Source: Sulfurihydrogenibium yellowstonense SS-5
Lineage (GTDB): Bacteria; Aquificota; Aquificia; Aquificales; Hydrogenothermaceae
Length of the DNA: 5,149 nucleotides
NCBI RefSeq assembly: GCF_000173615.1
Contig: NZ_ABZS01000122.1
Coordinates: 1-5,149 of the forward strand
Reading direction: 5' to 3'
A program made the translations under genes and the position numbers. The notes beneath the pieces were generated by a model that saw only the letters and a program-made list of their open reading frames with translations, made no database searches and was not told the DNA's origin. Positions within the stretch are counted from its first letter, which is position 1. Each line of letters begins with the position of its first letter. This document shows positions 1 through 5,149 of this stretch, piece after piece.

Positions 1-549
1 AACTACTTGAAAGCTAACCTGCCATGGCTGAGCTCCAAGGGCGTATGCTGCTTCTCTTGTTGCCTGTGGAACTAATTTCATCATCTCGTCGGTTGTGATT
101 ACTATAACCGGTATCATAAGCAATGCAAGCGCTACAGAACCGGCTATTCCCATAAAATGACCAACCGGATAAACAAGTATCGCATATACCACTGCACCTA
201 TGACGATAGATGGATTACTTACCATTACATCAACTATGTTTCTTGCAATTCTAAACACTTTTGAGTTTTGACCATACTCGGCAAAGAATATACCTGCTAA
301 TATTCCAATAGGCGTTCCTATCATAGTTCCAAGAACAGTGATGATTAAATGACCGATAAAAGCATGTTTTAATCCACCGCCTTCCATACCGGGTGGAACC
401 GGGTCTTTTGTAAATAAATCTAAATTTATGTATTTAAAACCGTTAATAAGCAAATCTCCAAGTATCCAAAACAAGAAGAATAATCCAAGAAGTGCAGAAA
501 AACCCGATAATGTAAGGAATATGTAATTTTCTAACTTTCTTTTAACCAT
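1..549 (-). CDS. pstA: Phosphate ABC transporter permease PstA (5' part, runs off the window)
   Basis: This is one of the two inner-membrane permease subunits of the high-affinity PstSCAB phosphate importer. It pairs with PstC and docks the ATPase PstB. The first 183 codons are visible and open to the window edge, out of roughly 280-300 in the family. Hydrophobic segments lie at about residues 9-34, 63-90, 112-130 and 132-153. The motif NPSIVIG (112-118) corresponds to the conserved PSIV region of PstA. The EAA loop that contacts the ATPase begins at about 166, with EAAYALGAQPWQ visible before the cut. The ATG at 549 lies three bases after the pstC stop. Its Shine-Dalgarno (GGAAGGTG) overlaps the last pstC codons, which supports this start and implies coupled translation. 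PstA rather than PstC is chosen from gene order and the PSIV region. No defect is seen in the visible part. Confidence 0.95.
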   Translation of the reverse strand, partial: MVKRKLENYIFLTLSGFSALLGLFFLFWILGDLLINGFKYINLDLFTKDPVPPGMEGGGLKHAFIGHLIITVLGTMIGTPIGILAGIFFAEYGQNSKVFRIARNIVDVMVSNPSIVIGAVVYAILVYPVGHFMGIAGSVALALLMIPVIVITTDEMMKLVPQATREAAYALGAQPWQVSFQVV

Positions 550-1566: not shown

Positions 1567-1606
1567 CTTGGGTGAGAAATTGGCGGTTTTTTTAAAATTT
1601 AAAAAT

Positions 1607-1700
1607 GAGATCCTTCGGACTTACGTCCTCAGGATGACAGAGAAAGCGAAAGTATGTTAACGATTGCCTTACTTGTCATTCTGAGCGAAGCGAGGAATCT
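1607..1700. repeat. Dispersed-type palindromic repeat, two arms in inverted orientation
   Basis: The left arm is 1607-1639 (begins GAGATCCTTCGG, ends CTCAGGATGACA) and the right arm is 1674-1700 (TGTCATTCTGAG ... GGAATCT). The reverse complement of the right arm aligns with the left arm. The inner ends share TCAG(A/G)ATGACA with one mismatch over 11 bases, and the outer ends share AGAT and TCG with two differences. Each arm also folds on itself: ATCCT/AGGAT and GGAC/GTCC in the left arm, GC/GC with a GAA loop in the right arm. The spacer is 34 bases. From memory, this sequence type (TGTCATTCTGAGCGAAGCGA...) recurs between genes in many unrelated bacterial genomes, often as such palindromes. 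Copy number here cannot be judged from one window. It may be a non-autonomous mobile or REP-like element, or an mRNA-stabilising hairpin. Confidence 0.75.
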
Positions 1701-1805
1701 ACTACTTTTATCCAATTTCTCCACCCTACGTATTTACATATACACTCTATAGCTTTAGAAAATCCTAAGACATTATTATAAAATAAAAACAATATTGCTT
1801 TTCTT

Positions 1806-1839
1806 AAAAATAAAAGCCCCACCTTTTTAGAGGTAGGGC
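1806..1839 (-). terminator. Intrinsic terminator after pstS
   Basis: On the minus strand, a 9-bp stem (GCCCTACCT paired with AGGTGGGGC, one G-U wobble) with a six-base loop spans 1839 down to 1816. It is followed directly by a T-rich run, TTTTATTTTT (1815-1806). It begins 29 bases after the pstS stop. There is no T-run on the opposite side, so it acts in one direction only. It should end most pstS transcripts before pstC, leaving the binding protein in excess over the permease. Confidence 0.9.
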
Positions 1840-1868
1840 AAGATTGGAGGTTAGACATGAGAAAAGTA

Positions 1869-2879
1869 TTACATCAATCCGTTTTCTTTCCAGTATGACC
1901 TGATTAAATCTTTCACGTTTTGCGGCATTGGGATATAGTTTAATCTTGCAGCTTCTTGGTCTCCATTTGTAAATACCCAGTCAAAGAAATTAACTGATTT
2001 TTTTGAGCTTTCTGGTTTATCTTTTGCAAGTAATATAAATACAGCTCCAGTTATTGGATATGAGTTTTTGCCCGGTTGGTCTGTTAATACTTCATAGAAA
2101 TGCTTCATTTTATCCCATTTAGCGTTAGCAGCTGCTGCTTGGAAGCTTTCCATAGATGGAGCAACAAAGTTTCCTTCTCTGTTTTTAACTTTTCCAGCAG
2201 GCATGTTGTTTTGTTTTGCATATATAAATTCTACGTATCCTATTGCTCCTCTCATTCTCTTAGTGTAGTTAGCTACACCTTCATTACCTTTTCCGCCTAC
2301 GCCAGTTGGCCAGTTAACAGATGTTCCAAATCCAACCTTTTCCTTCCATTCTGGGCAAACTTTTGATAAGTAGTTAGTCCAGATCCAAGTTGTACCAGAA
2401 CCATCAGACCTACGAACTACCGTGATCGGTCTATCCGGTAAGTTTACGCCAGGGTTTAGTTGTTGTAAGTATGGGTCGTTCCACTTAGTGATTTTACCCA
2501 TGTATATATCACAGAGAGCTTTTCCGTCAAAGTTAAGAACTTCTTTTACTTCTGGTAGGTTGTAAGTTGGAACTACTCCACCGATTACTGCCGGGAATTG
2601 GAGTAATTTCTTTTGGTTTAACTCTTCTGGTGTTAATGGAGCGTCTGATGCACCAAAGTCTACTGTTCTGTTTTCAATCTGTCTGATACCACCACCAGAA
2701 CCGATTGATTGATAGTTAACTTTGTTTCCTGTTGCTTTTTCATATGCATAAGCCCAAGCAGACATGATTGGATAGACAAATGTTGACCCTGCACCTGTAA
2801 CCGTTACTCCAGCTAATGCTGCAGTAGATGTTGCTAAAATTCCAGCTATTGCAAGTTTTTTCAAGCCTTTAACTTTCAT
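1869..2879 (-). CDS. pstS: Periplasmic phosphate-binding protein PstS
   Basis: This is the substrate-binding protein of the PstSCAB importer; it captures inorganic phosphate in the periplasm and delivers it to PstC/PstA. The 336 residues match the family. A signal peptide covers about residues 1-23 (basic start, hydrophobic core, cleavage near ALA-G). There is no lipobox Cys, so the protein should be soluble rather than lipid-anchored. Phosphate-binding elements are visible in family order: GAGSTF (29-34), GSGGGIRQI (60-68), DFGASDAPL (74-82), RRSDGSGTT (156-164) and GAIGYVEF (211-218). The C-terminal lobe has PITGAVFIL (275-283) and LNYIPMP (313-319). The ATG at 2879 is preceded by GGAGGT (2889-2894) at nine bases. 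It has its own promoter with phased repeats upstream and a strong terminator downstream, so it is probably a highly expressed, nearly monocistronic unit. No key residue appears to be missing. Confidence 0.98.
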   Translation of the reverse strand: MKVKGLKKLAIAGILATSTAALAGVTVTGAGSTFVYPIMSAWAYAYEKATGNKVNYQSIGSGGGIRQIENRTVDFGASDAPLTPEELNQKKLLQFPAVIGGVVPTYNLPEVKEVLNFDGKALCDIYMGKITKWNDPYLQQLNPGVNLPDRPITVVRRSDGSGTTWIWTNYLSKVCPEWKEKVGFGTSVNWPTGVGGKGNEGVANYTKRMRGAIGYVEFIYAKQNNMPAGKVKNREGNFVAPSMESFQAAAANAKWDKMKHFYEVLTDQPGKNSYPITGAVFILLAKDKPESSKKSVNFFDWVFTNGDQEAARLNYIPMPQNVKDLIRSYWKENGLM

Positions 2880-3006
2880 CTTCTTCTTACCTCCGTAAAA
2901 TTTTTAAGATTATGATACTATGAAAATGTTTATTTTTTATTAATTTTTTGTTAAGAAATTTTAACAATTTCCCCTCTCCCTCCCAAACATACAAAAAGCA
3001 GTAGGA
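2880..3006. other. Porin-pstS intergenic region
   Basis: This 127-base gap holds the pstS ribosome binding site, the phased-repeat promoter, and, just upstream of the promoter, a purine-rich tract on the minus strand (2971-2984; three G-runs of 3, 3 and 4). No convincing intrinsic terminator for the porin gene is seen, so some porin transcripts may read into pstS. Confidence 0.6.
2912..2964 (-). promoter_or_regulatory. pstS promoter with four phased Pho-box-like hexamers
   Basis: Reading the minus strand, hexamers TTAAAA (2964-2959), TTAACA (2954-2949), TTAATA (2943-2938) and TAAACA (2932-2927) are spaced 10, 11 and 11 bases start to start. The -10 candidate TATCAT (2917-2912) follows nine bases after the last hexamer. 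No good -35 is present, which fits an activator-dependent promoter. The hexamers match the Bacillus PhoP site TT(A/C/T)A(C/T)A (two exactly, two with one mismatch), and the spacing to the -10 resembles an E. coli Pho box. Transcription would begin near 2905, leaving a leader of about 26 bases. The DNA is AT-rich, so this alone would be modest evidence. The same geometry in front of the porin strengthens it. Confidence 0.65.
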
Positions 3007-3339
3007 TTACCAGCTAAGCTCAGCTGTTAACATGTATTTTGATTTATCTTTATAATCTGGGTTAGTTCCTTTGTAATCATAATTGATAACGTTTGCAATC
3101 CATTTTACATATTTGTTCATAGTGTACGCTACACCAAAGTAGTAAGCATCTCTTTTGTTTGCTTTTATAGGATTTACTGTTGCATCATTATTACCACCTA
3201 AATCGTTTTTAAATCCTAACTCTTTCTTAAACTTCCAGTAGTCATATCTTGCAAAAATAGCCCAATCTTTAACTGGTCTTACTTCTGCGTTTACTGAGTA
3301 CCCATCACCTGCTTGTGGAGATAGTGAGTTATAATCAGT
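3007..3339 (-). pseudogene. 3' part of the porin gene, displaced into the -1 frame
   Basis: Reading on from the AAAA run at 3339-3342 in the -1 frame gives 110 more residues, beginning TDYNSLSPQAGDGYSVNAEV and ending LTAELSW before TAA at 3007-3009. They show barrel strands (WAIFARYDYW, DAYYFGVAYTM, YVKWIANVINYDY) and the C-terminal aromatic residue that outer-membrane proteins need for barrel assembly. One extra A in the run would restore a single 440-residue porin. The fragment has no start or ribosome binding site of its own. It is either a true frameshift mutation, phase variation in a short run, or, most simply, a sequencing or assembly error. The composition of the fragment shows no decay, which argues that any mutation is recent. 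Confidence 0.85.
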
Positions 3340-4328
3340 TTTGCATACTGTGCTGCGATTAAGAACATTGGGTGGTTATAAACTGCATGGATATGATAGA
3401 GATTGAGGTTTTTATGAGTAGTATATGCATCGTTATATCCAATGTTGCTTGCTAAGTGTAAAGATATGTTTGCATACTGGTCTTTTGTTGGGCTAACTTT
3501 TTTGTCCCCGTTTCCAAATAGGTGATACGTTACTCTACCTTCAAAAGAGTTGTGGAAGCCGGATGATCTTTGAGATTTTGTGTTAATCTTGTCATAACCT
3601 TCTCCGTTAAACATTCCTATCTCAGAGGTGATGTATGGAGTTTTTGTATTGAAGCTAATTCCAAGGTCTGCTGATGGCCATAGCCCTGCACCATCTGAAG
3701 ATTCTAAGAATACTTTATCTACAGACCTGTACAACCATCCAGAATTTTGTTCAAAATCAATCCAAGGTGTATGAGCTACACCAAACTTAAAGCTAGTGCG
3801 AGGAATTAAACTAGATATGTCTTTGTAGAGATAAGCATACTTAATTTTGAGTTTATAGTCTGTTCCTGTTGATAAATCAGTAGTAAATCTGATATGGTCT
3901 TTGTCTGAGATATAAGCCTTTGTATCAAAGTAAAATCTTCTTGCTTCAAAATCGCCTGCGTCGTTAACATTGTTAGATGTTGTTGAGTTGTGATACTTTT
4001 CTTTAATAGTAGTATAAGTATAGCCTAAGTAAGCCTTTCCGCCAATTTCAAACTTCTTAAACTTACCTGCTAATGCTGGCATGTCTCCCCATTTTTTCTC
4101 AAGCTTTGACAACTTATCCTTTGCTTCCATTGCTGTTTTGTCAATTTCAGCTTGGTATCTTGCCTTTTCTGCCTCTTCTTTTGCAAGCTGCTCGTCAATT
4201 GCTGCAGCTTCATCTTCTCTTAAGATACCCTTCTCAACAAGTTTTTTGAGAATAGGGTTCTCGACAACTTGTGCGTTTGCAAGCCCTACAGCTCCTAAGA
4301 GAGCCATCACTGCTAAAGTTCTCTTCAT
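3291..4328 (-). CDS. Phosphate-selective-type outer-membrane porin (frameshifted; in-frame part)
   Basis: This is probably a channel for phosphate and similar anions in the outer membrane, of the OprO/OprP type (Porin_O_P-like). The open frame gives 345 residues. A signal peptide ends near ANA-Q (residues 17-20). A charged, Glu/Lys/Ala-rich helical stretch that could form a coiled coil covers about 23-80. The barrel follows from about 88 with alternating strands (FEIGGKAYLGYTYT, 93-106) and the region WLYRSVDKVFLES, then SADLGISF and GMFNGEGYD (219-246), typical of these porins. After Lys330 the frame leaves the barrel and adds 15 unrelated residues (starting LIITHYL). The proper barrel continues in the -1 frame to 3007, for 440 residues in total. 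The ATG at 4328 has GAGGAGG (4337-4343) eight bases upstream. The phosphate role is inferred from family resemblance, its neighbours and its Pho-box-like promoter. Alternative: a general porin of the same fold. Confidence 0.82.
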   Translation of the reverse strand: MKRTLAVMALLGAVGLANAQVVENPILKKLVEKGILREDEAAAIDEQLAKEEAEKARYQAEIDKTAMEAKDKLSKLEKKWGDMPALAGKFKKFEIGGKAYLGYTYTTIKEKYHNSTTSNNVNDAGDFEARRFYFDTKAYISDKDHIRFTTDLSTGTDYKLKIKYAYLYKDISSLIPRTSFKFGVAHTPWIDFEQNSGWLYRSVDKVFLESSDGAGLWPSADLGISFNTKTPYITSEIGMFNGEGYDKINTKSQRSSGFHNSFEGRVTYHLFGNGDKKVSPTKDQYANISLHLASNIGYNDAYTTHKNLNLYHIHAVYNHPMFLIAAQYAKLIITHYLHKQVMGTQ

Positions 4329-4424
4329 CTAAATAACCTCCTCTAAAAATATTATTCGCATATCACTATACCAAATAAATTTTAAGATTTAATGAAAGAA
4401 TGGTTAAAATTTGTTAATAATTTT
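4329..4424. other. phoD-porin intergenic region
   Basis: The 96-base gap is almost fully occupied by the porin promoter array and the porin ribosome binding site. No intrinsic terminator is visible after phoD, so phoD transcripts may continue into the porin gene. Confidence 0.6.
4365..4417 (-). promoter_or_regulatory. Porin promoter with four phased Pho-box-like hexamers
   Basis: On the minus strand, TTAACA (4417-4412), TTAACC (4407-4402), TTCATT (4396-4391) and TTAAAA (4385-4380) are spaced 10, 11 and 11 bases. The -10 TATAGT (4370-4365) follows nine bases after the last hexamer and is preceded by TGG, an extended -10 arrangement. There is no recognisable -35. Transcription would begin near 4358, about 30 bases before the ATG. 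The array starts only seven bases after the phoD stop. The first hexamer matches the PhoP consensus exactly and the other three are one base off. The layout is the same as in front of pstS. Confidence 0.62.
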
Positions 4425-5149
4425 TTAAAATTTCATTAATCCCTTTCCAGGAATATACTGATAAGTTGCTGCTATTTCTTTATTTGAGTCTTTTTTATAT
4501 TTGTCAACGTTTACTATTTGGCACTTGGCAGATGATTTATCTATATCTAAAATAGAATATCCCCATACTCTATGGCTTAGATACTTTGTCCATGGGTTTT
4601 GTTTCATTTCTAACTGGGCATATTCATCTACATCTTTAACTCCGTAGTCTTTCCACCAGTTGGCTTCTGCTGCAGAAATTGAGGATATTGCAGGAGTCAT
4701 AAACTCTGCTCCGACGATTTTCTCATAGCTTTCTTTAAATTCTGTAGGTATTTCTGCAATCAAGGCGGCGTGTCTATCTCCTGTAAGGGCTACAAATTTG
4801 TTTATGTTATTTTTGTTTAAAAATTCTATTATCTCTTGTCTTTCTTTTATATATCCATCCCAGGCATCTAAGGAGCCATAAAGTCCGTTTATTTTTCCTT
4901 GTACAAATTGAACTTCGTTAGCTACTATTTTCCAATTATTTCCTTGTTTTAGCTTTTCATAAAACCAGAATTTTTGATTTTCTCCAAGCATTGAGGTTTT
5001 ATACTGGTCTTCACAACCTGCGGATGCGAATCTTTTATCGCAAGGTTGCGGTGTTCTGTAAGACCTTTCATCTAAGCAAATCAAATGTGCTAATTCTCCA
5101 ATTTTGAAATCTCTATAAATGGTGATCCATTCTAAAGGATTTTGAGCCT
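4425..5149 (-). CDS. phoD: PhoD-family alkaline phosphatase/phosphodiesterase (C-terminal part)
   Basis: This is a secreted or periplasmic metallophosphatase that frees phosphate from phosphomono- and diesters. In the family it uses Ca2+ and Fe3+ and is usually exported by the Tat system. Only the last 240 codons are inside the window, roughly half of a 500-residue family member. The frame is open to the edge, so the TTG at 5084 is not a real start. Visible family elements (numbered from the first whole codon at 5147): NPLEWITIYRDFKIGELAHL (3-22), the metal-site region ICLDERSYRTP (23-33), MLGENQKFWFYEKL, DAWDGY, LTGDRHA with the metal-binding Asp and His, EFMTPAISS, and a terminal NPWTKYLSHRVWGYSILDID region whose His is a candidate ligand. 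The signal peptide and first metal-binding Asp lie outside the window. It is the first visible gene of the cluster and supports a phosphate-scavenging role for its neighbours. Confidence 0.92.
   Translation of the reverse strand, partial: AQNPLEWITIYRDFKIGELAHLICLDERSYRTPQPCDKRFASAGCEDQYKTSMLGENQKFWFYEKLKQGNNWKIVANEVQFVQGKINGLYGSLDAWDGYIKERQEIIEFLNKNNINKFVALTGDRHAALIAEIPTEFKESYEKIVGAEFMTPAISSISAAEANWWKDYGVKDVDEYAQLEMKQNPWTKYLSHRVWGYSILDIDKSSAKCQIVNVDKYKKDSNKEIAATYQYIPGKGLMKF

What the first reader, a model, noticed from the sequence alone, without database searches (positions are those of the whole stretch)
2912..4417. Two promoters with the same four-hexamer Pho-box geometry
The arrays at 2964-2912 (pstS) and 4417-4365 (porin) place TTAACA-like hexamers at identical offsets 0, 10, 21 and 32 from the first, with the -10 hexamer at offset 47 in both. 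The sequences between the hexamers differ, so this is not a recent duplication. Neither promoter has a -35. The hexamer resembles the Bacillus PhoP consensus, while the nine-base gap to the -10 resembles the enteric Pho box. The likely reading is a four-site array for an OmpR-type response regulator (PhoB/PhoP) in a lineage where the site seems little described. AT-rich sequence raises the chance of coincidence, but the shared register is hard to explain that way.
Basis: partly seen in the sequence, partly recalled or inferred. Interest (0 to 1): 0.72.

Follow-up and report, generated by a model that had tools for sequence, protein, structure and literature searches.

The report
Conserved phosphate switch in heat-loving bacteria
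The DNA before two genes of a Sulfurihydrogenibium genome carries the same evenly spaced row of four short sites, a pattern that recurs before phosphate-uptake genes in many related genomes and likely lets a PhoB-like regulator switch those genes on when phosphate runs short.

Summary
Both arrays lie at the stated coordinates with the stated register. A sequence model trained only on other genera gives 64 listed matches (E<=1e-3) in 61 related genomes, against 1 for a reversed control model. Sites lie before the porin, pstS, a psiE-phoB operon, TonB-receptor genes, a P1B-ATPase operon and small CxxC protein genes. The core is three CTTAACA-like units every 11 bp, then a -10-like hexamer 9 bp after the last hexamer: close to the E. 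coli Pho-box layout, with a cyanobacterial-like unit. My searches found no description for Aquificota. Two amendments. The fourth, upstream site sits 10 bp, not 11, from its neighbour. In most porin/pstS arrays, the window's pstS included, it reads better as an inverted unit (TTGTTAAG = reverse complement of CTTAACAA), making a near-palindrome; the window's porin array is an exception. Binding by PhoB and regulation by phosphate are inferred, not shown. Verdict: a real, conserved, predicted Pho box with an unusual leading site; new variant of a known kind.

The parts
   Evidence: inverted reading 8.8 bits vs direct 2.0 for the identical G005 array
2949..2955 (-). pstS array, site 2, CTTAACA (direct)
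2938..2944 (-). pstS array, site 3, ATTAATA (direct)
2927..2933 (-). pstS array, site 4, ATAAACA (direct)
2912..2917 (-). pstS predicted -10 hexamer TATCAT, 9 bp after the last hexamer
   Evidence: first T, second A and last T at these columns in 31, 29 and 31 of 32 arrays
2948..2967 (.). 20-bp near-palindrome TTGTTAAAATTTCTTAACAA made by sites 1 and 2
   Evidence: the identical G005 and G002 stretches have 1 mismatch to the palindrome
4413..4420 (-). porin array, site 1, TTATTAAC (direct reading TTAACA at 4417-4412 scores better in the near-identical G005 array)
4402..4408 (-). porin array, site 2, TTTAACC
4391..4397 (-). porin array, site 3, TTTCATT (TTCAT variant also seen in relatives)
4380..4386 (-). 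porin array, site 4, CTTAAAA
4365..4370 (-). porin predicted -10 hexamer TATAGT, 9 bp after the last hexamer
1869..2879 (-). pstS, phosphate-binding protein
   Evidence: TIGR00975 404.3 bits, cut-off 205; PF12849
553..1503 (-). pstC-like permease
   Evidence: PF00528; name from order in the cluster
1..549 (-). pstA-like permease, cut by the contig end
   Evidence: PF00528; name from order in the cluster
   Evidence: no Pfam hit; six close relatives have 432-469 aa ORFs; expected C-terminus in another frame
4425..5147 (-). phoD-like phosphatase, 5' end off the contig
   Evidence: PF09423 137.9 bits

Best explanation
Both arrays belong to one conserved promoter-like pattern, with CTTAACA-like sites 11 bp apart, a further site 10 bp upstream and a -10-like hexamer 9 bp after the last site, and they are predicted to be Pho boxes that a PhoB-like regulator likely binds to switch on phosphate genes. 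Shown by sequence: the geometry, its recurrence in related genomes, its targets, and nearby psiE-phoB, phoU and phoR-like genes. Inferred: when phosphate is scarce the PhoR-like kinase would phosphorylate the PhoB-like regulator; its protomers would line the direct sites head to tail; the two sites nearest the gene would stand in for the missing -35 and hold sigma-70 over the -10. The array on psiE-phoB would give positive feedback. The upstream site would add affinity at the porin and pstS promoters.
For: Model scan: R1, trained without the window's genus, gives 64 listed matches at E<=1e-3 in 61 genomes (17 are its own training arrays, a few more are close copies of these); control R2 gives 1. 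For 59 of the 64 I identified a gene downstream; 2 were not looked at, 2 lie at contig ends, 1 is the reverse-strand match of an array already counted. Targets: porin, pstS, psiE-phoB, P1B-ATPase operon, TonB receptor, DUF2334 and PHP-like genes, small CxxC protein, pyruvate-kinase-like, RNaseH-like. psiE-phoB carries it in 8 genomes (G002-G006, G012, G015, G019). In G004 and G006 psiE-phoB is the divergent neighbour of the porin. A PhoR-like gene (278-285 bits) is the best match in 7 of 7 genus genomes and lies 3.4-4.1 kb from pstS in 6; in G000 it is on another contig. The -10 columns, not used in anchoring, are T 31/32, A 29/32, T 31/32. E. coli pstS, phoA and phoB, measured the same way: 17 bp from the first base of the unit nearest the -10 in 3 of 3; here 16.
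Against: No binding or expression data. No PhoB-like protein passes the TIGR02154 cut-off of 296.2 (0 of 61 genomes, best 255.1; G000, G026, G031 and G036 have none over 200 bits), and no PhoR-like one passes its own (0 of 7; for the G004 kinase PnpS scores higher than PhoR, also under cut-off). Genomes hold 2 to 19 matching regulators. Outside the 8 genomes named, I saw no listed R1 match beside a PhoB-like gene of over 200 bits (the list stops at E 0.048). In G000 itself only the last 17 residues of PhoB are seen, at a contig end. The window's porin array is a weak, partial match and is not in the listed part of the genome scan; the G002 and G005 copies are (E 4.4e-4 and 0.0065). Only 35 of 78 upstream regions reached score 16, in 31 of 50 genomes; several f2 genomes have another gene right before pstS and no array there; the G001 porin shows none.
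Confidence: 0.9

Rival explanations
1. The array is read by another OmpR-type response regulator, with PhoB only one of its targets.
For: 2 to 19 TIGR02154-like matches per genome, none over the PhoB cut-off. In genomes outside the eight with psiE-phoB arrays no listed match lies beside the PhoB-like gene. Some targets (P1B-ATPase, pyruvate-kinase-like, RNaseH-like) are not classic phosphate genes.
Against: The only regulator operon among the 39 tabulated sites is psiE-phoB; core targets are phosphate genes; a phoR-like gene lies near pstS in 6 of 7 genus genomes and phoU beside it in G004.
Confidence: 0.07
2. Chance: AT-rich promoters throw up TTAA repeats, and the shared register is coincidence or A-tract phasing (an UP-like element).
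For: AT-rich DNA (GC 0.20 and 0.26 in the two intergenics); at the loose limit E<=1 the control model also has 11 matches in G000 against 25 for R1.
Against: 0 of 2000 shuffles (geometry fitted to the data); 64 vs 1 at E<=1e-3; C/G positions and the TTAA core, not just A-tracts, are conserved.
Confidence: 0.02
3. The upstream site is an ordinary direct unit that merely sits 10 bp away; its TTGTTAAG look is a side effect of the self-complementary TTAA core.
For: In the G005 twin of the window's porin array the direct reading is better (6.7 vs 4.7 bits), and in G003 pstS too (2.1 vs -1.6). psiE-phoB of G002 and G005 has ATTATTAAC there.
Against: Inverted reading better in 22 of 24 non-redundant arrays, mean 8.4 vs 0.8 bits (whose anchoring used TTGTTAAG). 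With anchoring that ignored this site, GTTAA stands at the exact place in 24 of 35 and TTGTTAA in 19 of 35.
Confidence: 0.35

Closest known systems
E. coli PhoB Pho box (K-12 pstS, phoA, phoB promoters, fetched)
   Same: Units every 11 bp before a -10; four units before pstS; first base of the unit nearest the -10 to the -10 is 17 bp in 3 of 3 E. coli promoters vs 16 here; the G005 PhoB-like protein shares 84 of 225 aligned residues with E. coli PhoB.
   Different: Unit CTTAACA instead of CTGTCAT; upstream site 10 bp away and often inverted; the four E. coli pstS units are all direct and 11 bp apart.
Cyanobacterial SphR Pho box (CTTAACCT, 8 bp + 3 bp linker, at least three tandem copies; PMC1906773, passages read)
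   Same: Nearly the same unit (CTTAAC), 11-bp period, three direct copies.
   Different: Described as tandem direct repeats; the words 'palindrom' and 'inverted' occur 0 times in that main text. Here there is a fixed 9-bp gap to the -10.
Bacillus PhoP box (TTAACA-type hexamers, about 11-bp period)
   Same: Hexamer TTAACA.
   Different: Recalled only; no call checked it (one search listed papers, none read for this).

Membership tests
PHO box (review PMC4415409, passages read) | Two or more 11-nt direct repeat units, seven positions well conserved, four less so | tested here: met
   sites 2-4; linkers vary
PHO box (review PMC4415409, passages read) | Stands before phosphate transport and regulator genes | tested here: met
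   pstS, porin, psiE-phoB
PHO box (review PMC4415409, passages read) | Units in head-to-tail (direct) orientation | tested here: inconclusive
   sites 2-4 direct; site 1 better inverted in 22 of 24 non-redundant arrays, but direct in the G005 twin of the window's porin array
PHO box (review PMC4415409, passages read) | Bound by the phosphorylated phosphate response regulator | not testable with these tools
   needs footprinting
sigma-70 promoter with Pho box in place of -35 (recalled for E. coli) | -10 at fixed distance, no -35 | tested here: met
   -10 columns T 31/32, A 29/32, T 31/32; TTGACA matches in the -35 slot at most 4 of 6 in 39 sites; E. coli distances
PhoB (NCBIfam TIGR02154) | Score over the curated cut-off 296.2 | tested here: not met
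   0 of 61 genomes over it; still the best NCBIfam family for the G004 protein, 223.9 bits; hence 'PhoB-like'
PhoR (NCBIfam TIGR02966) | Score over the curated cut-off 334.2 | tested here: not met
   0 of 7 genomes over it, best 284.6; hence 'PhoR-like'
PhoU (NCBIfam TIGR02135) | Score over the curated cut-off 130.25 | tested here: met
   178.4 bits in G004, the one protein scanned, next to phoR-like

The most novel reading that the evidence does not exclude
The porin and pstS promoters of Hydrogenothermaceae open with an inverted PhoB site: sites 1 and 2 form a 20-bp palindrome that seats a head-to-head PhoB pair matching its symmetric receiver dimer, and this seed then extends head to tail over the direct sites to the -10. 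A Pho box would thus carry both symmetries in one operator.
Probability: 0.3. Interest if true: 0.6.

Novelty: new variant of a known kind. Interest (0 to 1): 0.42.

Why it matters
It gives Aquificota, a thermophilic phylum often placed deep in the bacterial tree (recalled), a testable Pho regulon with a written-out operator, and ties several uncharacterised genes (a CxxC small protein, a P1B-ATPase operon, DUF2334 genes) to likely phosphate control. If the inverted leading site is used, it bears on how a symmetric receiver dimer places its DNA-binding domains on tandem sites.

Tried and rejected
Chance was rejected with shuffles and a reversed model. A simple 27-base pattern with up to 3 mismatches in the own genome was too loose (27 matches, 11 for the backwards control). 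The idea that the 20-bp palindrome is a free-standing site of another factor was not supported: of 14 listed places with at most 1 mismatch, 12 are these arrays (the list was cut before all genomes were shown). Literature on inverted Pho sites: searches (18 papers, 15 listed; 28 papers, 10 listed), listings only, showed none in titles or abstract starts. Rows dropped: G060_pstS and G035_porin from the 34 arrays scoring 20 or more, leaving 32; G017b from 18 candidate training arrays; 5 of 44 examined hits before the table of 39 (the G005 porin and G002 RNaseH-like hits as repeats of known classes, one hit overlapping a start codon in G000, two at contig ends). In one search the anchoring used the -10, so its 38 of 39 is biased; the 32-array count is not. 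In one search the three window-type porin arrays (G000, G002, G005) were anchored off register and count as misses. Five of the 55 genomes with a pstS match (G044, G046, G048, G050, G051) were not in the 50 upstream regions compared.

Full report
What is in the window. The window is a whole contig of a draft genome, 1.53 Mb in 228 contigs and 82.67% complete. On the minus strand it reads phoD-like, porin-like, pstS, pstC-like, pstA-like.

The observation. Against 2000 dinucleotide shuffles of each intergenic stretch, none reached the observed score. Because the geometry was fitted to these two sequences, I sought independent tests.

Conservation. I compared 78 regions: upstream of pstS in 50 of the 55 genomes with a match, and 28 upstream of porins, among 61 genomes of the order. 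Anchoring on the direct units and the -10 alone, 35 of 78 scored at least 16, in 31 genomes. The commonest form is TTGTTAAG AAAT CTTAACA AAAA CTTAATA AAAA CTTAACA, then 9 bp, then TAnAAT. In 32 arrays anchored without the -10, its first T, second A and last T are present in 31, 29 and 31. Where the porin directly precedes pstS, the array often stands before the porin; in the window's genus it stands before both in 5 of 7 genomes (weakly before the G004 and G006 porins), while G001 shows none before the porin and G003's porin start is off the contig. In the neighbouring family some pstS genes have a two-unit version, such as TTAACA-N5-TTAACA-N9-TATACT in G045 and TTAACG-N5-TTAACA-N9-TATAAT in G053, read by eye; others there have another gene right upstream and no array.

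Genome-wide test. A sequence-only model R1 from 17 arrays of other genera was run over 61 genomes: 64 listed matches at E<=1e-3 by my count. The same alignment reversed (R2) gave 1. Of the 64, 17 are training arrays and a few more are close copies. For 59 I identified a gene downstream. Beyond pstS and porin they include psiE-phoB in 8 genomes (PsiE, PF06146, confirmed in G004 and G005); a set of small genes followed by a P1B-type ATPase (TIGR01525 479.5 bits in G005, the one scanned); a 56-65-residue protein with paired-cysteine motifs; a TonB receptor; a DUF2334 gene followed by a PHP-like one (DUF2334 confirmed in G052; PHP named by eye); pyruvate-kinase-like genes (by eye); and an RNaseH-like gene (PF04308). 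The G005 and G000 TonB-receptor sites lie just over the limit (E 0.0016 and 0.0014; G058's is 2.6e-5); in G005 the receptor is followed by ExbB (PF01618), two more genes and the phoD-like gene in one direction. The 39 tabulated sites are (5 of 44 dropped, see Tried and rejected).

Regulator. Every genome has OmpR-type regulators, 2 to 19 matches each; none passes NCBI's PhoB cut-off, and G000, G026, G031 and G036 have none over 200 bits. The candidate in the array-bearing operon has TIGR02154 as its best family (G004, 223.9 bits), shares 84 of 225 residues with E. coli PhoB (G005), and its DNA-binding domain matches the E. coli PhoB structure 1gxp by sequence (E 5.5e-15). In G004 and G006 it is the porin's divergent neighbour. 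In G004 PhoU and a PhoR-like kinase end the pst cluster; the PhoR-like gene lies 3.4-4.1 kb from pstS in 6 of 7 genus genomes, and on another contig in G000. In the window's own draft phoB is cut by a contig end, with only 17 C-terminal residues at 94% identity. Outside the 8 psiE-phoB genomes no listed match lies beside the PhoB-like gene, so autoregulation is not general, or is not seen by this model.

The first site. With anchoring that ignores it, the first site's TTAA lies 10 bp before site 2 in 27 of 35 regions and 11 bp in 1; the base at the place before it is G in 29 of 35, GTTAA stands there in 24 and TTGTTAA in 19. Scored by a matrix of sites 2-4 from other genomes, the inverted reading wins in 22 of 24 non-redundant arrays (means 8.4 vs 0.8 bits; that set was anchored with TTGTTAAG, hence the check). 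The window's pstS site reads TTGTTAAAATTTCTTAACAA, one mismatch from the palindrome TTGTTAAGNNNNCTTAACAA. The G005 twin of the window's porin array goes the other way (4.7 inverted vs 6.7 direct). At the 39 other sites a TTAA 10 bp upstream occurs in 18 and 11 bp upstream in 5, mostly without the TTG. So the 10-bp step is the commoner one wherever the site exists, and the inverted flanks belong mainly to porin and pstS promoters.

Comparison. Measured with the same ruler, E. coli K-12 pstS, phoA and phoB have 17 bp from the first base of the unit nearest the -10 to the -10; here it is 16. E. coli pstS also has four units. The cyanobacterial SphR box, CTTAACCT with 3-bp linkers in at least three tandem copies, is nearest in sequence (PMC1906773, passages). 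The review PMC4415409 (passages) defines the PHO box as two 11-nt direct repeats and notes that receivers dimerise head to head while DNA-binding domains sit head to tail. Searches for a Pho box in Aquificota: one search found 0 papers; one search listed 2, unrelated; one search listed 10 of 328 and 12 of 167, none on this by title or abstract start. The library lacks most subscription papers, so this is not proof of absence.

Likely working. Inferred: PhoR-like kinase, low phosphate, phosphorylated PhoB-like protein, head-to-tail filling of sites 2-4, recruitment of sigma-70 to the -10, with positive feedback on psiE-phoB where the array is present. The role of the upstream site is open.

Noticed in passing
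window 3009-3400 (minus strand): The porin gene is out of frame near its 3' end: the 345-aa ORF ends early while the expected C-terminus (..YMLTAELSW) lies in another frame; six close relatives have 432-469 aa ORFs. Real mutation or assembly error cannot be told.
   Followed up: partly
window 1805-1840: A terminator-like hairpin just after the pstS stop codon; similar hairpins with different stem letters stand at this place in several genus-mates (by eye). Possibly an attenuator or stabiliser that lets pstS outnumber pstCA.
   Followed up: no
window 1600-1720: A dispersed repeat ('..CCTCAGGATGACAG..' and '..TGTCATTCTGAGCGAAGCGAGGAATCT..') between pstS and pstC; part of it also in G002 at the same place (L010) and in L162 before another gene (by eye).
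   Followed up: no
L163, L169, L171-L175, L177, L194, L196, L197, L199: A small (56-65 aa) protein with paired-cysteine motifs, no Pfam or NCBIfam hit in the one member scanned (G005), has the array in 12 genomes: an uncharacterised likely phosphate-starvation protein.
   Followed up: partly
L284, L186, L290: Small unknown proteins followed by a P1B-type ATPase (scanned in G005) carry the array in two families; why a metal pump would be under phosphate control is unclear.
   Followed up: partly
L180, L181, L183, L176: A DUF2334 gene plus a PHP-like gene carry the array in four genomes; lipid or polysaccharide remodelling under phosphate stress is a guess.
   Followed up: no
L092 280-1633 (G005): The phoD-like ORF of G005 ends at ..EANWW, where the window's ORF reads on for about 75 more residues: one of the two may be shortened.
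   Followed up: no
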